This document shows positions 1 through 25,196 of a stretch of DNA of 64,000 bases, one piece after another; position 1 is the stretch's first letter, and each line of letters begins with the position of its first letter. Under the pieces are notes generated by a model. It saw only the letters and a program-made list of their open reading frames with translations. It did no database searches and was not told the origin of the DNA. This DNA is from Eunapius fragilis. Lineage: Eukaryota > Porifera > Demospongiae > Spongillida > Spongillidae. The position numbers and the translations under genes were made by a program. The stretch covers positions 10,030,020-10,094,019 of the forward strand of contig OY811977.1 of the NCBI GenBank assembly GCA_963681505.1. The letters run 5' to 3'.

Positions 1-2026
1 TATTCTCCCATAGAAATGTATGGGAGGGAACCACTAATCTATTTGCATAGTACAGCCAAACCAATGAGCTGATTATAGAGTAGGCATTATTTAGTGAAAG
101 AAAACAGGTTACTCGTTTGTTCCATGAAGTAGGATCGCAACTCCCCAAGGTTGTTAAATTAACACCTTGGTGGGTAGATAGCCAGTATTCTCCCATCGAA
201 CTGTATGGGAGGGAACCACTAATCTATTTGCATAGTACAGCCAAACCAATGAGCTGATTATAGAGAAGGCATTATTTTGAGAAAGAAAACAGGTTACCTG
301 TTCGTTCCATGAAGTAGGATCGCAACTCCCCAAGGTTGTTAAATTAACACCTTGGTGGGAAGATAGCCATTTTTCTCCCTTAGAAATGTATGGGAGGGAG
401 CCACTAATCTATTTGCATAGTACAGCCAAACCAATGAGCTGATTATAGAGAAGGCATTATTTTGAGAAAGAAAACAGGTTACTCGTTCGTTCCATGAATA
501 CATATCGCAACTCCACTAGTTTGTTAAATTAACACCTTGGCTGGAACATAGCCAATTTTCTCCCATAGAAATTTTTGGGAGGGAACCACTAATCTATTTG
601 CATGGTACAGCCAAACCAATGAGCTGATTATAGAGAAGGCATTATTTTGAGAAAGAAAAGAGGTTACTCGTTCGTTCTATGAAGTAGGATCGCAACTCCA
701 CTAGTTTGTTTAATTAACACCTTGGTGGGAAGATAGCCAATTTTCTCCCATAGAATTGTATGGTAGGGAACCACTAATCTAATTGCATCGTACAGCCAAA
801 CCAATAAGCTGAATATATAGGACGCATTATTTAGAGAAAGAAAACAGGTTACTCGTTCGTTCCATGAATACAAATCGCAACTCCACCAGTTTGTTAAATT
901 AACACCTTGGTTGGAACATAGCCAATTTTCTCCCATAGAAATGTATGGGAGGGAACCACTAATCTATTTGCATCGTACAGCCAAACCAATGAGCTGATTA
1001 TAGAGGAAGCATAATTTTGAGAAAGAAAACAGGATACTCATTCGTTCCATGAATACATATCGCAACTCCACTAGTTTGTTCAACTAACACCTTGGTTGGA
1101 ACATAGCCAATTTTCTCCCATAGAAATATATGGGAGGGAACCACTAATCTATTTGCATCGTACAGCCAAACCAATGAGCTGATTATTGAGGAGGCATTAT
1201 TTTGAGAATGAAAACAGGTTACTCGTTCGTTCCATGAAGTAGGATCGCAACTCCACTAGTTTTTTTAATTAACACCTTGGTGGGAAGATAGCCAATTTTC
1301 ACCCATTGAAATTTATGGGGGGGAACCACTAATCTATTTGCATCGTACAGCCAATCCAATGAGCTGAATGCATAGGAGGCATTATTTAGAGAAAGAAAAC
1401 AGGTTACTCGTTCTTTCCATGAATACATATCGCAACTCCACTAGTTTGTTACATTAACACCTTGGCTGGAACATAGCCAATTTTCTCCCATAGAAATGTA
1501 TGGGAGGGAACCACTAATCTATTTGCATGGTACAGCCAAACCGATGAGATGATTATATAGAAGGAATTATTTTGAGAAAGAAAACAGGTTACTCGTTCGT
1601 TCCATGAAGTAGGATCGCAACTCCACAAGGTTGTTAAATTATCACCTCGGTGGGAAGATAGCCATTTTTCTCCAATAGAAATGTATGGGAGGGAACCACT
1701 AATCTATTTGCATAGCACAGCCAAACCAATGAGCAGATTATAGAAGAGGCATTATTTTGAGAAAGAAAACAGGTTACTCGTTCGTTCCATAAAGTAGGAT
1801 CGCAACTCCACTAGTTTGTTAAATTAACACCTTGGTGGGATAATAGCCTATATTCTCCCATAGAAATGTATGGGAGGGAACCACTAATCTATTTGCATAG
1901 TACAGCCAAACCAATGAGCTGATTATAGAGTAGGCATTATTTAGTGAAAGAAAACAGGTTACTCGTTTGTTCCATGAAGTAGGATCGCAACTCCCCAAGG
2001 TTGTTAAATTAACACCTTGGTGGGTA
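1..2026. repeat. 185-bp satellite array, left block (about 11 monomers)
   Basis: The same sequence recurs every 185 bp; for example CCACTAATCT starts at 31, 216, 401, 586 and 771. Each monomer carries an inverted repeat with arms CTCCCATA and TATGGGAG, the motif CTATTTGCAT, and the block ACAGGTTACTCGTTCGTTCC. The array ends at the transposon and resumes in register at 8773. Short minus-strand reading frames of 69-95 codons occur in many monomers, but 185 is not a multiple of 3 and the frames break at monomer boundaries, so I do not call them genes. Confidence 0.97.
2025..2026. other. Target-site duplication, left copy (TA)
   Basis: TA precedes the element here and TA follows it at 8771-8772. 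Removing the element and one TA rebuilds the unbroken satellite found at 12281-12310. GGGTA is shared at both edges, so a 3-5 bp duplication is also possible; TA is preferred because it makes the two terminal inverted repeats equal in length. Confidence 0.8.
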
Positions 2027-2036
2027 CCCGGGCGAA
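2027..2036 (+). repeat. Terminal inverted repeat, left
   Basis: CCCGGGCGAA lies directly after the target TA. The inward-read right end is CCCGGGTGAA, so one mismatch in ten. Confidence 0.85.
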
Positions 2037-2043
2037 GCTTTGG

Positions 2044-2221
2044 GCGTTGCAACGCATAGCAGCGCGTTGTAAGAGTACAGTTTATAATAGTAATTACTTC
2101 ATACAACGCGTTGCCACGCTTTAGGCATGCCGTTGTATCGCGGTTTTAGGGCCGTTTTTCAAGCGTAACAGCGCGTTGTATACGCGTAACAACGCGTTAT
2201 ATGCACAACGCGTTGCAACGG
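2044..2221. repeat. Left subterminal repeat cluster (GCGTTG / CAACGC motifs)
   Basis: Seven or so related motifs occur within 180 bp, in both orientations. GCGTTGCAACGC at 2044-2055 is a perfect palindrome. Others are GCGCGTTGTA near 2062, ACAACGCGTTG near 2103, CCGTTGTATCGCGG near 2130, GCGCGTTGTATACGCG near 2171, ACAACGCGTTAT near 2189 and ACAACGCGTTGCAACGG near 2205. Clustered subterminal motifs are a known hallmark of CACTA-type elements, where an accessory protein binds them. The cluster lies downstream of the BEN gene stop codon, so it may also fall in its 3' UTR. Confidence 0.8.
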
Positions 2222-2340
2222 TATAATTCAATGTGTTTTTTTTTTTCAGATGATCAAGATGAAGAAAAAAAATGCAGCAAAATGTTAATGCACCAAAAAT
2301 GACTGTTGCACCACAAATGAGTTACAGTGCTACATCTGGC
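2222..2340. other. 3' flank of the BEN-domain gene
   Basis: This short stretch between the subterminal cluster and the BEN gene stop is probably 3' UTR on the minus strand. It is A/T rich; I see no clear AATAAA signal on the minus strand. Confidence 0.4.
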
Positions 2341-4909
2341 TCAGTGCGCCACCTCTCTGCCATTTTTGTTGGCGTTGGCACGAACAGTTCTACACTTGGA
2401 GTTCATGTTTACTTGGATGATGTGCTTCCATGCTGATGCATCCACTTCAGGATATTTGTATTGCACATGTACTAATAAATGTTTATAAATGATACATAAG
2501 GACAATAAAATACTACATCAACGAAACTTACAGCGAATACCATTGATGGTGCGTTGGTCAAGGAGTGGCCTTCCAGTAGGAGTTGGAGTACAGTTCCCTG
2601 TTTGAAGCTGGGCCTCCGTGAATAGCACCGTCATGAGGTGGATTGCAAGCTTGGAGGGTGTATCAGATATAAATTCTGCAGCCAGCACCTTCCCCTGTTC
2701 CGCTCCTTCTATCCAGACCTGCTCCCCATTAGGATCACCTAGCCAACATCCTGTGAAATCAGAACGTGCTAATACATGTATAATTGTGGGTTCAAAAAAC
2801 TTAAATGGGACAGTGTCCAGCAAAACATCTTGTTGTTATACTCTTTCCAGGACAAGCAAAATAAAAGTAACGCTCGCATTGAAATGTATGGCTAATTATA
2901 AATTCAGTGCCTAATAACTTTGTGATGGATATGTCCAATTTAGGATGCAAAAGGACCATTTGATAGAAGCTCATTGGCGTTCACGGAAAATCAAACTTGA
3001 AAAACTAGCCACAAGGGAGATATTGCTGGACACTGTCCCATATATATATATATATATTTTTTTTTTTCATGGTACAAATGATACATTGTGCATTGTGCAT
3101 GCATATACCTTTTTCAGTAGGTGCCATGCTACCACCGACTGCTCCTTTATCTAGGAAATTATAGAATATCAGATAAAAAACAACTTCATTGCAACCGTGC
3201 TGTACCTTTCATGACTGCAGATTCTGTGCTTCCTTTCAATTGAATCTGTAGAGTTCGTCAATTCAAGTATACAAATGTTGAAATCCGTAATTGAAAATTA
3301 CCAAATTCATCTGTCGCTGCAGTTCGTTCACACTCATTTCCAGGTCATACACCCTCTTTTTCATTCCTTGAATTGCCTGCTGCAGTGTAAAACAAAAGTT
3401 ACTATGCGCACATTGAAGTCAGCACATTATATGACTAGAACCTTAAGGTCATCATTCGTTTCTTTGCTTGCATATGATTCTACGTTGTTCAAATTGAAGG
3501 CAATTTGTAAGTAAAGTTTTATTCATACCTCCATAACTTGACCAGCTAGTAGACGGTGAAAGCATTATACTAGAATCATTGTCCTAAGTTAGAAAGTAGA
3601 AACTCAAAATACCAGCTCGTACTTATTTTAACACATACCTGATTTTGCATGGAAGACATTGCTTTTCGTTTCTTGACTGGCTGCACATAAAACTCTTCAG
3701 CATTCTAGAGCAAGTTACATGTAAACAGGTGATTATTTGTACTGCGATGATTTGGAAATTGTACCTCCAATCTGTATCTGCCTTCACTGGCAACCTTCAC
3801 CTGTTCCTAATTAACCAGATATAATAATTGTCATAAAAAAATATATGTATATATACCTTGTCATTCTTCATTGAAGTCAACAGTGCTGCACTTCGAGCCA
3901 GTGCTGCTTCATTCTTCTTTTTTTCTTTGCTGTGCTTCTACATGTATGTAGCATGCATGTTTGTGAAATCATACCACATTATCATCATAACATACAGAAA
4001 GAGGTCTCCGAACTTGGGCTAAAAAGAAGGTAACAAATGTCTCAGCTCTGAGGATTGCATAATTAAATGGCCATACTACCTGCATCTTCTGTAGTTACAA
4101 GCTCCTCAGCCTCTTTCTCCACCTAACAAGACCAGATGTGTTTGTAATGTCAAACAAATAAATTAATTACATTGTCTTTCTCCAGTAAATTTGAGAGTGT
4201 GCTAGCTGCTTCAGGTTTCTTCTTTTTGCGGTTTTTCTATACAGCATGCATTGTTGTACATAATTATTACCACATTATGTCATAAAACCTACGGAATTAT
4301 GAGCTCTCTGAACTTTTGTGGTTGGAAGTAAAAAAGGAGCACATGTGTCAGTTTCAAGCTAAAGAGTCAAATGGGGCATTTAAGGTTGTACCTGTATCGT
4401 CTGTCAGCTTCCCGTTTTCTTTGTCCACTTTCAACTTCTTTTCCTCGCCCTCATTTCCTTCCTTTTCATCATCTATTATTATGAGCGGTTAAATTCATAT
4501 TTAATCCAAACATTGACATACTCGATAACGATCCGTCACTATCGCCGCTTAAAGTGGCCAGCACAGCATCCATTTGCTTCCGCCCCCCTGCAACAAGAAC
4601 AGTAATCACACCTATTAGTATTTCCATGAACAGAACCGAGTGCCGTGATTGTTGCCGTGTAGAAGCTGCCGTCCGTCCACTTAACTTCCACATTATCGCC
4701 GACTCTGATGGATTTGTCCGACTCAGAAGTTGATGTAATACACGATAAAGGGACAGCACTCTTTTTTCCGTCAGAAAACTCAACACATGCATGTGTCGAT
4801 GCTGTAAAAGTAGAATCCATATAGTGCCTAGGCTAATAAATAACTTTCACACAGAATCACACTACTTACGACACCAATTCACACTCTGCTGTCTAAGTGT
4901 AGCCGCCAT
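2341..4909 (-). CDS. Tudor-like and BEN-domain accessory protein of the transposon (16 exons, 426 aa)
   Basis: Proposed coding exons in transcript order: 4909-4870, 4801-4637, 4587-4522, 4472-4392, 4312-4293, 4236-4171, 4122-4080, 4018-3996, 3937-3857, 3806-3765, 3704-3639, 3379-3302, 3245-3206, 3150-3109, 2828-2532, 2471-2341. Every intron is GT-AG, phases agree and the sum is 1281 nt. Residues about 14-68 resemble a Tudor-like fold (VGDNVEVKWTDGSFYTATI). Residues about 118-231 are lysine-rich, 232-257 look coiled-coil, and 285-426 form a BEN-like domain (PLLDQRTINGIR, KYPEVDASAW, NSKCRTVRA). BEN domains are known in chromatin, viral and transposon proteins and can bind DNA. The start is the ATGGCGGCT context at 4909; a later ATG at 4820 lies inside intron 1. 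The two smallest exons (20 and 23 nt) are the least certain. A role in binding the subterminal repeats is inferred. Confidence 0.8.
3858..4392 (-). repeat. Internal exon-intron duplication in the BEN gene
   Basis: The block with exons 5 and 6 (4312-4171) and the block with exons 8 and 9 (4018-3857) look like copies. Both encode a microexon (VQRAHNS versus AQVRRPLS) followed by a lysine-rich exon (KNRKKKKPEAAS versus KHSKEKKKNEAALA). The introns between the paired exons also match: both contain AGCATGCAT and ACCACATTAT in the plus strand. The end of exon 4 (DDT) and of exon 7 (EDA) are also similar. A DNA-level tandem duplication explains all three. Confidence 0.7.
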
Positions 4910-4969
4910 GTTTAACACGTGTACAAACTGTGATAAACCAGGAATTCTCCGCATACTCTACAATTTAAA
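4910..4969. promoter_or_regulatory. Compact bidirectional promoter region
   Basis: Only 60 bp lie between the two divergent start codons, so the transcription start regions must overlap or lie within the coding exons. A palindromic E-box CACGTG is at 4916-4921. No TATA box is obvious. Shared control of the two genes is an inference from geometry. Confidence 0.55.
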
Positions 4970-7900
4970 ATGTCTAACCCTCGGTTAGTATTCTTACGTG
5001 ATGGTGGTCCTATTCCTCCGAGAACGAAAAGGCGTCACAGCTTGTTTTCTTCAACACCGCGTACTAATGCAGTGTCAGAATGTGACTTTGATTGTCGACC
5101 GTTTGAATTGGGCAATGCTAGTTCTGATTCTGACATAGTTTATAGTGATGTCGATGACGTAACTGAACCAGACAGTTCTATAGTAGACGATTCGAATGGA
5201 AGCGATACCGATAATTTCTGTGATGAAATATGGAATGGAAGTGATACTGATGACGTTAGTGATGATGGAAACCATGATTCATTGTTTGACGAAGATATTA
5301 CTGATCGCATGAAGGATGTAGATGGTGAATCTGGTGATTTTTTTGAATATTGTGTACCTTTATATCCAAGTGCTATTAAAACTGTTTTTGAGTACCATGT
5401 AGAGACATATCAGTTTGCATTGAAGCACAATCTCACTAAAGTTGCTTACCAAGATCTCTTAAATCTTATCCCTCAATTTTTACCTTCCTCTAACTTGGCA
5501 ATAAAATCCCTACATAAACTCAAGGGCCTCTTTAACAACATTTGGAACAGAGATGTGGCCCTCAGTAAGCACAGGTACTGTTCGATTTGTCACATTCCAT
5601 TGACAAAAGATGAAAAAGTGTGCTCACGCAATTGTGGCCAAGCCATTGAACATTTCGTATTGTGTGACATTGAACTACAATTGAGGACATTCATGTCAGG
5701 TAATTTTTATTTGGCCACAATGTTTTAACTTTATGCTTTTTTATTGTGCAAGATCCAAACATATGGAATTGTTTGCAATTGCGTTTCAAACATGATGGGA
5801 GATTGACAGACATATATGGTGGTGCAGAATACAAAAAACTTATGGAGCCTGGACAATTTCTGTCGCATCCAGAAAATGTATCCTTTTGTTTGAATACTGA
5901 TGGTATTCAAGTCTTCAAGTCATCAAATACTGAGATTTGGCCAATTTGGTTACAGATCAATGAACTTCCCCCTGCAATGAGGTAAACTTTTTTTCATTTG
6001 CAATTATCACATAGTTATACTTGGTCATTTTCTAGATTCTCTAAAAAATATGTCATTTTGGCGGGCATTTGGTATTCCAAAGATAAGCCAACCATGTCAA
6101 CCTATCTTCAACCACTAATAGAGAAAATTAATATCCTTTATAATGAAGGTTACAGTATGTTGCATATAATAATGATCTCACATACTATATGTGTACCATT
6201 TCTCAGGGTTTGATGTGTGTACACCAGCAGGTCAAAGGAAGGCTCATGCCATCATTTTGCACTGCTCTGCTGATCTTCCAGCTGCTGCTAAAGTTGGAAA
6301 TCATATGCAATACAATGGATACTATGGTTGTGGCACTTGTGATAGCTCTGGTACATTAGTGGGTCGTACTATGTACTGGCCTTTTGATTCTGCAGCACAT
6401 ATTCGAACACATGACTCTATTCTAAAGTGTGCTGAAGAAGCAATAAAACAAAAAAAAGCGGTACACTCTATTAATACACTTTAGCTGTTATTTTAACATT
6501 TCTCATTTTTCATCAGGTATTTGGCATTAAAGGGTTACCAATTATGGCCTTGCACCATCCTTTTCACCTAGTTTACGGCATGGTTAAAGACATTCTGCAC
6601 TGTGGATATCTAGGAGTTGTGAAAGCATTGCTTGTAAATCATTGGTTCTCCACAACGAACAGAGATAAAGATTACAACATTGTTGATAAGGTAGAGCTGT
6701 ATCCATGATCTGACATGCACTCAATTTTATGCAACTGTTCATGCACTCAGTTAAGCATTTGTGATAATATTCTTGAGAATATACTTGTACCAAATACGAT
6801 TTCAAGACCTCCTAGGTCATTGAGACACTTGGCCAGATGGAAAGGTAATATCTAATATAAAGACATTGTGATAACATTTAAAACATTTTTTCAGGGTCTG
6901 AATTTCAATCATGGCTGCTGTATTACTCTATTCCAGTGTTGAAGGACATTCTTCCAAATAAGTATTTTGAGCATTATGTGCTGCTTGTGGGAAGTATCCA
7001 CATTATGATGAGTGATGACATATCTGATTTTGACATTCAGCTTGCTGAGTGCTGTCTTAATCACTTTTACATTCAGTTTTCAGATTTGTATGGTAATTAA
7101 AACATGCATGCTTCTTGCATAATGCATTTCATGTCATCTTAATTCAGGGGTATCTTCCACAACAATGAATGTACATTTACTCAGTCACCTATCATTGTAT
7201 GTTCGGCTGTGGGGTCCATTGTGGACAACATCATGCTTCTGCTTTGAAAGCCTGAATGGTGACCTGAAAAGATTATTTCATGGAACAAAGAATATGTCAA
7301 TGCAGGTAAGAGAGAAGTGATAAAAAGATACATTTCAAACACTTCAATTTCAATAGCTGTTATACTCGTTTGGAATGTCGCAACTACTTCCACATGTTAT
7401 GAAGAAGGGAATAGTTAATTGCAACCCAAGCTCAAGGTAAATGTTTGCATTTCTCCCTTTCTACCACTTCAGATACATTTATCCCTTTGTAGTACCATTT
7501 CAGGGCATTCTATTCATTCTACAGTGTACAAACTGGGTAAAGGTTGTAACGCAGATAATTACGTCACAACGACTGTGTTACAACAAATGTGTGAAGTAAT
7601 GGGAACAAGTGTCCGATCACATGATTGTGAAGTATTCTTCAGAGCATCTGTGAGGAATGAAATTTTTAATTCTGTTGCATACACAAGAACTAAAAAACAA
7701 AACAGTTATACAGTTGCATACAATCAGAACACAGGCATTGGAGAAATTGAGTACTATGTTTCATTCAAGCATTCTGAAACAATCCTAGCAGTCATTACTC
7801 CATTCCACATGATGACACCTCCAACTGTATCTTCTTTTGCTTGTATCCAGGAATACATAAGTACGAGACTGGGAGTTCTTGATCAATTGAACAGAGGAAG

Positions 7901-8018
7901 CAAAATTATAATTTCTGCAAAAGACATATACTGTAAATGTGTGACCATGAGAATAGGATCGAAATTGTATGCTTGTAGGCTTGCAAATCATTTGTATAAT
8001 TCATCATTAATTAAGTGA
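4970..8018 (+). CDS. Transposase, EnSpm/CACTA tnp2-like (10 exons, 851 aa)
   Basis: Proposed coding exons: 4970-5699, 5753-5981, 6036-6148, 6207-6460, 6517-6690, 6751-6844, 6895-7092, 7148-7305, 7357-7436, 7493-8018. All introns are GT-AG, phases agree, and the sum is 2556 nt with one terminal stop. The N-terminus (about 45-120) is acidic and serine-rich. A CxxC-x10-CxxxC putative zinc knuckle uses Cys204, 207, 218 and 222. Three family motifs carry candidate catalytic acids: Asp293 in NTDGIQVFKSSNTEIWPIW, Asp467 in VKDILHCGYLGVVKAL, and Glu631 in FCFESLNGDLKRLFHGT. This order and spacing match tnp2-type transposases with a DDE/RNase-H core. No stop or frameshift is visible. The acceptor at 7493 was chosen by phase; nearby AGs break the frame. 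The DDE assignment rests on motif resemblance. Confidence 0.87.
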
Positions 8019-8631
8019 ATTATGTAATACAATTCTTAGTATGAAAAACAGTACTCTGATATTTGTGTTATTGTAATATGCTCTTTCAGTGTTATTATAG
8101 TAATACACAATGTCATGTATTTCTGCAATGTACATGCACATAGTCACTAACTTTACAATCCAAGCATAGTTAACTAAGTGTACTATTATTAGCATGCATT
8201 TAAGTATTCAATTGTCCAGTTCCATATTTGCATGTGTAAACAGTTACGGTATAAGATTAACACGCTTGGCGTTAGTGCTGTTCAGTATATAAAGTGTCGA
8301 TGTAATCATAGCGCGATGTTTAATTCCCTCCGTATGGTAATTAATGCATATGCGATAAGAGTGTACGAATTTATCGCGAGCTCTTTAGTAATGAATCTAC
8401 TTTAAGCTAAACAATTGATGCAGCTACGACTACCATATTTAGGCCGTTTGCATTAGCCCCCCCCCCCCCCCCCCCCAACCCCCTTCCCCGGTTTCTATAC
8501 GCCTCTGTGCTCAATGGATACTATCATATCTCATAATAATGACCTATGCAGAGCGCGATGATTCCCCTGCTATCTATATAAACTTATACTGATCGATCGA
8601 GCAGCGCGGACTCCCGAGCAGGATCCTCAAT
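8019..8631. other. Right flank of the transposon, 3' of the transposase
   Basis: This stretch holds no gene I can support. It contains a 20-base C run and two GCGCGATG motifs (near 8312 and 8554). It probably includes the transposase 3' UTR. Confidence 0.5.
8457..8476 (+). repeat. Homopolymer C20
   Basis: Twenty consecutive C residues, followed by AA and further C-rich sequence to about 8490. The minus strand could form a G-quadruplex. Homopolymers this long are prone to sequencing error, so the exact length is uncertain. Confidence 0.9.
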
Positions 8632-8653
8632 ACAACGCGTTCCAACGGCAACT
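8632..8653. repeat. Right subterminal motif
   Basis: TACAACGCGTTCCAACGGC repeats the left-end motif type. Only one or two copies are seen here against about seven at the left, so the ends are asymmetric. Confidence 0.65.
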
Positions 8654-8760
8654 TTTCTCTCGGGTAGCTGGTGCCCAGTCCCTACAAACACGTGAACTAA
8701 CGGAAGGTAACGCCATCCAACAAAATTGTGCGCATGAATACGCGTGTACACACTTAAATT

Positions 8761-8770
8761 TTCACCCGGG
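8761..8770 (-). repeat. Terminal inverted repeat, right
   Basis: TTCACCCGGG is the inverse of the left terminus with one mismatch and is followed directly by the target TA. Confidence 0.85.
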
Positions 8771-8772
8771 TA
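8771..8772. other. Target-site duplication, right copy (TA)
   Basis: TA is followed by GATAGCCAG, which continues the satellite exactly where the left block stopped at 2026. Confidence 0.8.
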
Positions 8773-23700: not shown

Positions 23701-25196
23701 AGTAGGATCTCAACTCCACTAGTTTGTTAAATTAACACCTTGGTGGGAAGATAGCCAATTTTCTCCCATAGAAATGTATGGGAGGGAACCACTAATCTAT
23801 TTGCATCGTTCAGCCAAACAAATATGCTGAATATATAGGAGGCATTATTTAGAGAAAGAAAACAGGTTACTCGTTCGTTCCATTAATACATACCGCAACT
23901 CCACTAGTTTGTTAAATTATCACCGTGGTTGGAACATAGCCAATTTTCTCCCTTAGAAATGTATGGAAGGGAACCACTAATCTATTAGCATCGTGCAGCC
24001 AAACCAATAAGCTGAATATATAGGAGGCATTATTTAGAGAAAGAAACCAGGTTACTCGTTCGTTCCATGAATACATATCGCAACTCCACTAGTTTGTTAA
24101 ATTAACACCTTGGTTGGAACATAGCCGATTTTCTCCCTTAGCAATGTATGGGAGGGAACCACTAATCTATTAGCATCGTGCAGCCAAACCAATAAGCTGA
24201 ATATATAGGAGGCATTATTTAGAGAAAGAAAACAGGTTACTCGTTCGTTCCATGAATACATATCGCAACTCCAGTAGTTGGTTAAATTAACACTGTGGTT
24301 GGAACATAGCCAATTTTCTCCTTTAGAAATGTATGGGAGGGAACCACTAATCTATTTGAATGGTACAGCCAAAGCAATGAGCTGATTTTAGAAGAGGCAT
24401 TATTTAGAGAAAGAAAACAGGTTACTCGTTCGTTCCATGAAGACATATCGCAACTCCACTAGTTTGTTAAATTAACACTGTGGTTGGAACATAGCCAATT
24501 TTCTCCCATAGAAATGTATGGGAGGGAACCACTAATCTATTTGCATCGTACAGCCAAACCAATATGCTGAATAGATAGGAGGCATTATTTAGAGAAAGAA
24601 AACAGGTTACTCGTTCGTTCCATGAATACATATCGCAACTCCACGAGTTTGCTAAATAAACACCTTGGTTGGAACATAGCCAATTTTCGCCCATAGAAAT
24701 GTATGGGAGGGAACCACTAATCTATTAGCATCGTACGGCCAAACCAATGAGCTGAATATATAGGAGGCATTATTTAGAGAAAGAAAACAGGTTCCTCGTT
24801 CGTTCCATGCGTACATATCGCAACTCCACTAGTTTGTTAAATTAACACCTTGGTTGGAACATAGCCAATTTTCTCCCGTAGTAATGTATGGGAGGGAACC
24901 ACTAATCTATTTGCAACGTACAGCCAAACCAATGAGCTGAATAAATAGGAGGCATCATTTTGAGTAAGAAATCAGGTTACTCGTTTGTTCTATGAATACA
25001 TATCGCAACTCCACTAGTTTGTTTAATTAACACCGTGGTTGGAACATAGCCAATTTTCTCCCATAGAAATGTATGGGAGGGAACCACTAATCTATTTGCA
25101 TCGTACAGCCAAACCAATAATAAGAATATATTGGAGGCATGTTTAAGAGAAAGAAAACAGGTTACTCGTTCGTTCCATGAATACATATCGCAACTC
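8773..25196. repeat. 185-bp satellite array, main block (about 89 monomers)
   Basis: The monomer and period are those of the left block. Variants define subtypes: CTATTTGCATCG versus CTATTAGCATCG, AACAGG versus AAGAGG, and GAATACATATCGC versus GAAGTAGGATCGC. Subtypes recur in fixed orders, giving higher-order units. The last monomers (24840-25196) diverge most, and the array stops after CGCAACTCC at 25196. No gene is supported inside. Confidence 0.97.
17690..20647. repeat. Tandem 8-monomer higher-order repeat, two copies of 1479 bp
   Basis: 17690-19168 is repeated almost exactly at 19169-20647. Diagnostic variants such as GAATGTATAGGAGG and AGTAGTTGGATAAAATAAC occur in both at an offset of 1479, which is 8 x 185 minus 1. 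This is typical of recent unequal exchange. Confidence 0.88.

What the first reader, a model, noticed from the sequence alone, without database searches (positions are those of the whole stretch)
2027..8770. An apparently intact transposon that pairs a CACTA-like transposase with a Tudor/BEN protein
Seen: both genes splice to uninterrupted frames (851 and 426 residues) with consistent GT-AG phases, between matched inverted repeats and a restored target. Known: classical EnSpm/CACTA elements encode a catalytic protein and a second protein that binds subterminal repeats. Inference: the BEN protein replaces that second protein here. A Tudor-like plus BEN combination could link the element to chromatin. 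Whether this two-gene arrangement has been described is not something I can establish.
Basis: partly seen in the sequence, partly recalled or inferred. Interest (0 to 1): 0.88.

Follow-up and report, generated by a model that had tools for sequence, protein, structure and literature searches.

The report
Animal transposon carrying a BEN-domain gene
An apparently intact cut-and-paste jumping element, inserted in satellite DNA of what is probably a sponge genome, carries beside its transposase a chromatin-type DNA-binding gene (Tudor-like plus BEN) that probably recognises short palindromes at the element's own ends; I did not find this pairing described.

Summary
Window 2027-8770 is a 6,744-bp element with CCCGGGYGAA termini and a TA target duplication. 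Joining the flanks restores the 185-bp satellite, and 8 of 42 matched monomers show the unoccupied site. It encodes a 10-exon, 853-aa transposase (Transposase_21; D293, D382, CxxC, HxxxH, E633) and, head-to-head, an 18-exon, 431-aa protein with a weak Tudor-like N-terminus and a BANP-type BEN domain.

The pairing is not a one-off: two further elements of one diverged family (transposase 52% identical) carry both genes in the same layout, so 3 of 3 near-complete copies seen, in two families. Ephydatia muelleri has several gene models of the same Tudor-like/BEN protein.

AACGCGTT recurs near the ends of both families. Human BANP's BEN domain binds CGCG sites, and its base-contacting Ser and Arg are kept here. 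Best reading: an animal TRC-type CACTA element whose BEN protein does the job of plant TNPA. Binding and transposition are inferred. The window BEN scores 0.5 bit below Pfam's cut-off, the Tudor part well below; expression was not testable. New variant of a known kind.

The parts
2025..2026 (.). TA, left copy of the target site duplication
2027..2036 (+). left terminal inverted repeat CCCGGGCGAA (BEN-gene end)
2105..2214 (+). left subterminal repeats: AACGCGTT at 2105-2112, 2191-2198, 2207-2214
2341..4909 (-). Tudor-like/BEN gene, 18 exons, 431 aa: 4909-4870, 4801-4637, 4587-4522, 4472-4392, 4312-4293, 4236-4171, 4122-4080, 4018-3996, 3937-3857, 3806-3765, 3704-3639, 3583-3529, 3479-3442, 3379-3302, 3245-3206, 3150-3109, 2750-2532, 2471-2341
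   Evidence: exon model by eye
4637..4801 (-). exon 2, holding the Tudor-like stretch
   Evidence: below Pfam cut-off
2341..2750 (-). exons 17-18, holding the BANP-type BEN domain (residues about 313-420)
4910..4969 (.). 60 bp between the two start codons; presumed divergent promoter (inference)
   Evidence: coordinates
4970..8018 (+). transposase gene, 10 exons, 853 aa: 4970-5699, 5753-5981, 6036-6154, 6207-6460, 6517-6690, 6751-6844, 6895-7092, 7148-7305, 7357-7436, 7493-8018
8634..8641 (+). right subterminal AACGCGTT
8761..8770 (-). right terminal inverted repeat, TTCACCCGGG on the + strand (CCCGGGTGAA read inward)
8771..8772 (.). TA, right copy of the target site duplication

Best explanation
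This is a two-gene DNA transposon of the animal TRC branch of the CACTA/EnSpm group. Shown by sequence: CCC-type inverted ends, a 2-bp TA duplication in a satellite, a DDE transposase with the group's metal-binding signature, and a second, divergently transcribed gene for a protein with a Tudor-like N-terminus and a BANP-type BEN domain, kept together with the transposase in two diverged families. Inferred: the BEN protein binds the AACGCGTT repeats just inside both ends, helps pair the ends for the transposase, and perhaps regulates the central divergent promoter. It would thus do what TNPA does in plant En/Spm, having been taken from a host Tudor-like/BEN gene family. Least certain: that the Tudor-like part reads a histone mark.
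For: Element borders and empty site. Transposase_21 and, in an alignment of 14 transposases, D293, D382, C401 and C404 invariant and H609, H613, E633 in at least 90% of rows, the D-D-C(2)C-H(3-4)H-E layout described for this group (PMC12730594, passages). BEN. Co-occurrence: E11 and E4 have both genes head-to-head with CCCG ends; their transposase is 52% identical to the window's and groups with it at 100/100 support. Remnants of both genes remain in the C1 copy and in C19, C9 and C20. Substitutions against the C1 copy: transposase Ka 0.039, Ks 0.107 (419 codons); BEN Ka 0.042, Ks 0.115 (211 codons). Motif: the 4 exact AACGCGTT in the 64-kb window all lie within 250 bp of the element's ends, 0.16 expected, 0 of 100 shuffles reach 4; left/right/interior counts W 3/1/0, E11 3/1/1, E4 4/1/1, 0 of 1000 shuffles of the ends reach them. 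BANP BEN: S313 and R316 contact bases of a CGCG site (PMC10206803, passages); the aligned letters here are S413 and R416 in SKCRT, and SKCRS in E11 and E. muelleri. TNPA binds subterminal repeats and is required for transposition in En/Spm (PMC2613891, passages).
Against: No binding, expression or transposition data. The window BEN scores 0.5 bit under Pfam's cut-off. E11 and E4 are about 97-99% alike, so the pairing rests on two families, not three. E11 and E4 gene models are rough and guided by the window proteins. E4's flanks do not match (TA and TG). Ka/Ks is against a decayed copy with 8 transposase codons and 1 BEN codon excluded as stops, and exons are only slightly more alike than introns (0.943 and 0.931; 0.941 and 0.924); a first, poorer alignment gave BEN 0.182/0.254. 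BANP prefers AAATCTCG and binds any DNA weakly, so AACGCGTT is not its known best site. Right ends have few repeats (one exact copy each). No E. muelleri transposase turned up, so co-mobility there is untested.
Confidence: 0.65

Rival explanations
1. The BEN gene is a passenger: a host gene captured in an ancestor of both families and carried along, with no part in transposition (perhaps acting only on host chromatin or on silencing).
For: A BEN gene outside the element (L006, C11:7578973) has a related Tudor-like exon (37% identity over 51 aa to the E. muelleri protein) and then a BEN domain on the same strand, so a host source is plausible. 30 of 30 sampled Transposase_21 loci of the same genome gave a transposase match but no BEN match within 1.5 kb, so the group as a whole does not need a BEN protein.
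Against: Kept in both families despite transposases only 52% identical; Ka below Ks to the same degree as the transposase; the shared subterminal AACGCGTT.
Confidence: 0.2
2. The BEN protein is a self-encoded regulator or anti-silencing factor (acting on the element's promoter or chromatin) rather than an end-pairing factor.
For: BEN proteins are described as transcriptional regulators (PMC10206803, passages); the two genes start 60 bp apart; plant TNPA also regulates its promoter (PMC1636069, passages).
Against: Exact AACGCGTT is absent from the interior of the window element, promoter included (0 in 6,244 bp), and sits at both ends.
Confidence: 0.12
3. Chance: two unrelated genes trapped between matching ends, or a false gene model.
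For: The BEN exons are short and were chosen by eye.
Against: The same pair, orientation and end type in a second family; E. muelleri gene models with the same domain order; exact empty site.
Confidence: 0.03

Closest known systems
SmTRC1 and other animal TRC elements of the CACTA superfamily (PMC1636069; passages seen)
   Same: Transposase_21 transposase, TIRs beginning CCC, 2-bp target duplication, extra element-encoded product(s) lacking the transposase domain.
   Different: The extra SmTRC1 proteins come from alternative splicing and showed no detectable similarity to TNPA or to other elements; no BEN or Tudor-like protein is mentioned in the passages I saw. Here the second protein has its own divergent gene.
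Plant En/Spm (CACTA): TNPD plus TNPA (PMC2613891; passages seen)
   Same: Catalytic protein plus a second DNA-binding protein; subterminal repeats; non-autonomous deletion copies.
   Different: Ends are not CACTA and the duplication is 2 bp. TNPA is a splice product of the same unit and not a BEN protein.
Fungal TET/JBP-carrying transposons, ESTA and Plavaka (PMC12730594; passages seen)
   Same: DNA transposons with a captured chromatin-type gene; ESTA makes TA duplications; same D-D-C(2)C-H(3-4)H-E signature.
   Different: The cargo is a dioxygenase, the hosts are fungi, and Plavaka termini are TGT or CATCA rather than CCC.
BANP (animal BEN transcription factor; PMC10206803 passages; PDB 7yuk)
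   Same: BEN domain with the SKCRT recognition segment; the CGCG-binding class.
   Different: A host gene; PMC10206803 passages describe no Tudor domain; reported sites are TCTCGCGAGA and AAATCTCG, not AACGCGTT.
Tn3-family TnpA, domain DBD1 (PMC9579193; one passage)
   Same: A BEN-like fold used for sequence-specific binding of transposon inverted repeats.
   Different: Bacterial, part of the transposase itself, resemblance by fold only.

Membership tests
CACTA/EnSpm group (CMCT), transposase | Transposase_21 domain | tested here: met
   60.7 bits, cut-off 28.6
CACTA/EnSpm group (CMCT), transposase | D, D, C(2)C, H(3-4)H, E catalytic layout | tested here: met
   D293, D382, C401xxC404, H609xxxH613, E633 in a 14-row alignment; the definition is from PMC12730594
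Classical CACTA | TIR beginning CACTA, 3-bp duplication | tested here: not met
   CCCGGG termini, TA duplication
Animal TRC | TIR beginning CCC | tested here: met
   window, E11 and E4 at both ends; the decayed C1 copy has CACGGG at its right end
Animal TRC | 2-bp target duplication | tested here: met
   TA in the window (with empty site) and in E11; E4 has TA and TG
En/Spm-like two-protein system | Subterminal repeats at both ends | tested here: met
   AACGCGTT, left and right, in both families, though one exact copy only on the right
En/Spm-like two-protein system | Second protein binds those repeats and is needed for transposition | not testable with these tools
   needs binding and transposition assays
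BEN domain | Pfam BEN over the curated cut-off | tested here: inconclusive
   window protein 22.7 against 23.2; E11 protein 27.3, P0001 33.3, P0002 33.0
BEN domain | Sequence match to a solved BEN structure, with the recognition helix residues | tested here: met
   BANP 7yuk E 2e-7, BEND3 7v9h E 0.013; SKCRT kept
Tudor domain | Pfam Tudor model over cut-off or confident fold | tested here: inconclusive
   Tudor_2 20.2 against 31.4; best PDB match KDM4A at E 0.074; the model of the E. muelleri relative has mean pLDDT 37

The most novel reading that the evidence does not exclude
A lineage of sponge DNA transposons recruited a host chromatin gene as its end-recognition subunit: the BEN domain binds CG-centred palindromes at the ends while the Tudor-like part docks on marked histones, so that the element couples end pairing, or choice of target such as satellite chromatin, to chromatin state.
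Probability: 0.25. Interest if true: 0.82.

Novelty: new variant of a known kind. Interest (0 to 1): 0.62.

Why it matters
It would give an animal counterpart of the plant TNPA/TNPD two-protein system, in which the accessory protein is of a recognisable, structurally understood class (BANP-type BEN) and its presumed site can be read off the ends. That makes a long-standing gap, namely what recognises subterminal repeats in animal CACTA-type elements, directly testable with one protein and one oligonucleotide. It would also add a transposon-borne branch to the BEN family, otherwise described in animal chromatin factors and viruses (PMC10206803, passages).

Tried and rejected
Sequence-only gene finding without homology gave poor BEN models; I replaced them with hand-picked splice sites. 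A MAFFT alignment of the window element to the internally deleted C1 copy gave BEN Ka/Ks 0.72; the block-wise BLAST alignment replaced it because MAFFT forced sequence across the deletion. Both are reported. Structure prediction of the E. muelleri relative on a 5-row alignment gave mean pLDDT 37 and was not used. Viral contigs held no relative of either protein (2 scans; 25 and 64 pattern matches, none confirmed). Rfam found nothing in the window. PF02992 over the genome lists 150 matches (150 of 305 candidates scored), but the window, E11 and E4 transposases, which are split by introns, are not among them, so that list cannot count this clade. The PF10523 search (29 candidates, 3 matches) likewise missed the three transposon BEN genes. 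I considered GGGTA as a 5-bp duplication with unequal ends; TA is preferred because the ends then match and E11 shows TA too. The fungal TET paper was consulted for termini only.

Literature: searches 'BEN domain' with transposon+Tudor+transposase (1 paper), with CACTA (2 papers), two of BEN domain/transposase/EnSpm (75 papers, 20 listed), sponge+transposable element, DNA transposon+captured, Repbase, transposons+terminal inverted repeats. In the listings and passages that I saw, none describes a BEN gene inside a DNA transposon. Only open-licence PMC papers are searched; Repbase itself was not available, and the paper that defined BEN was not held.
Full report
What was checked. The window lies at G000:C7:10030020-10094019 of a 219-Mb genome. 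It is probably a sponge, because the closest relatives of the BEN protein are six entries all bearing Ephydatia muelleri gene names; this is an inference.

Borders. The element runs from 2027 (CCCGGGCGAA) to 8770 (TTCACCCGGG), 6,744 bp, flanked by TA. It interrupts a 185-bp satellite that the repeat finder places at 3-2024 and from 8774 to beyond 14000, the end of the stretch scanned. Counting one TA, the satellite spacing across the element is 185. Of 42 monomers in the window that match the local motif, 8 read GGTGGG-TA-GATAGCC, which is the joined-flank sequence. This shows a clean insertion with a 2-bp duplication.

Transposase. Ten exons on the + strand (4970-8018) give 853 residues without a stop. 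Pfam gives Transposase_21, E 1.5e-16, and DUF1258, E 5e-9. In a 14-row alignment D293, D382, C401 and C404 are invariant, and H609, H613 and E633 are present in at least 90% of rows (one row, P0066, ends early). This is the arrangement that Kojima describes for EnSpm, Plavaka, ESTA, Transib and RAG1 (PMC12730594, passages).

BEN gene. Eighteen short exons on the minus strand (4909-2341) give 431 residues; the start codons of the two genes are 60 bp apart. Residues 349-417 match Pfam BEN at 22.7 bits, E 1.2e-4, half a bit under the cut-off. Residues 313-420 match human BANP in the PDB, E 2e-7. The N-terminal stretch resembles Tudor_2 and KDM4A at E 0.074: Tudor-like, not established. The middle may be a coiled coil; this is inference, as the only model is of low confidence.

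Other copies. DNA searches found: (a) C1:11603905-11607531, 87-91% identical, with an internal deletion removing most of the shared 5' region of both genes and its left end missing; (b) E11 (C11, 8,464 bp) and E4 (C4, 8,610 bp), about 97-99% alike; (c) C20, C19 and C9, a further lineage about 71-83% identical in pieces, all three with the same junction that removes the part corresponding to window 4708-5003. E11 and E4 contain both genes, head-to-head, and end in CCCGACGAAT (BEN side) and CCCGGGTGGA (transposase side). E11 is flanked by TA on both sides, E4 by TA and TG. Guided models give a transposase of 725 (E11) and 762 (E4) residues and a BEN protein of 476 and 455; the models are rough. 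Thus 3 of 3 near-complete copies seen carry both genes, but they represent two families. The shared junction of C20, C19 and C9 on three contigs suggests a non-autonomous derivative that spread.

Not fitting or not opened. C8:8820314 is a BEN fragment with no transposase match in the 5.5 kb fetched. C1:14463291 matches the E11 BEN exon at 96%, but the transposase DNA search lists nothing there; it was not fetched. C6:859735 and C4:4522387 match 98 bases of the transposase and were not fetched. Protein searches of the genome did not complete, so the survey is by DNA similarity and is incomplete.

Specificity. Of 30 other Transposase_21 loci fetched automatically with 1.5-kb flanks (the best 30 of 150 listed), 30 match the transposase queries and 0 match the BEN queries at E up to 1e-3. 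This only covers 1.5 kb and would miss a BEN gene further away. In a tree of 47 rows the window, E11 and E4 transposases form one group with 100/100 support, apart from the 21 of those 30 loci that gave a long enough piece. The tree program warned of several long branches, so the deeper order is not used.

Selection. Against the decayed C1 copy, block-wise alignment gives Ka 0.039, Ks 0.107 for 419 transposase codons and Ka 0.042, Ks 0.115 for 211 BEN codons; 8 and 1 codons were set aside as stops, and codons with gaps were skipped. Exon and intron identities are close (0.943/0.931 and 0.941/0.924). An earlier alignment, which I judge faulty, gave BEN 0.182/0.254. I read this as modest support for constraint on both genes.

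Ephydatia muelleri. The search for the BEN protein returned six entries, from two annotation sources, so some may be the same locus; the gene names and two different contig lengths suggest at least several loci. Three of them (P0001-P0003) begin with the Tudor-like stretch and contain the BEN domain. BEN-domain pieces are 71-89% identical to E11/E4, other pieces about 40-91%. No E. muelleri transposase came up, so linkage there is unknown.

Ends. AACGCGTT occurs 4 times in the 64-kb window, in every case inside the element within 250 bp of an end; 0.16 are expected and 0 of 100 shuffles reach 4. Left 250/right 250/interior counts are 3/1/0 (window), 3/1/1 (E11), 4/1/1 (E4); 0 of 1000 dinucleotide shuffles of the ends reach the observed sums. 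For plain CGCG the excess is smaller (5 or 6 of 1000 shuffles reach it) because the ends are CG-rich. The left (BEN-gene) end carries most copies. Human BANP's BEN domain binds CGCG within TCTCGCGAGA, with S313 and R316 touching bases; its best array site is AAATCTCG and it binds other DNA about 15-fold more weakly (PMC10206803, passages). The aligned residues here are S413 and R416. So a CG-centred palindrome is a plausible, unproved, target.

TIR-related elements. TACCCGGGYGRAA occurs 63 times in the genome against 25 for the backwards pattern; by position there are 13 converging pairs 483-487 bp apart and 10 converging pairs 1.8-15.5 kb apart. None of the 10 long intervals holds a listed PF02992 or PF10523 match, but those lists also miss the window, E11 and E4 genes, so this says little. 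Their content was not read.

Mechanism proposed. The transposase cuts at CCC/TA; the BEN protein, made from the divergent gene, coats the AACGCGTT arrays, brings the ends together or loads the transposase, as TNPA does for En/Spm (PMC2613891, passages), and may regulate the promoter. A host gene with a related Tudor-like exon followed by a BEN domain exists in the same genome (L006, 8 kb from E11), giving a plausible source, though it could be related in other ways.

Comparison. The element fits the animal TRC group: Transposase_21, CCC termini, 2-bp duplication (PMC1636069, passages). Its second gene is what sets it apart. In the seven text searches listed under Tried and rejected no such element appears; Repbase was not available.

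Verdict. Observation confirmed, interpretation supported with the limits above; new variant of a known kind.

Noticed in passing
window 2802-3044: A MITE-like insert with 22-nt inverted arms (core GGGACAGTGTCCAGCAA) lies within BEN intron 16 (2751-3108); a 165-bp part has a 72% match at C1:13444001-13454000.
   Followed up: partly
window 3-2024 and 8774 to about 25,000: 185-bp satellite array, about 90% matches between copies; landmark words run to about position 25,075.
   Followed up: partly
G000 pattern hits, e.g. C2:4107133-4107617: 13 converging pairs of TACCCGGGTGAAA ends 483-487 bp apart look like a MITE family with the same terminal bases as the window element.
   Followed up: no
G000, e.g. 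C6:1987896-2002534, C19:1250979-1266471: 10 converging pairs of such ends 1.8-15.5 kb apart may be further large elements; content unread.
   Followed up: no
L006 (C11:7578973): A BEN gene outside E11, about 8 kb from it, has a related Tudor-like exon about 1.35 kb upstream of its BEN domain on the same strand.
   Followed up: partly
L052-L057 (C20, C19, C9): Three dispersed copies of a third lineage share one internal deletion junction spanning the divergent promoter and both N-termini.
   Followed up: partly
L059/L060 (C1:19644572) and C1 copy right end: Two decayed ends read CACGGG instead of CCCGGG, closer to the CA..TG ends of the wider group.
   Followed up: no
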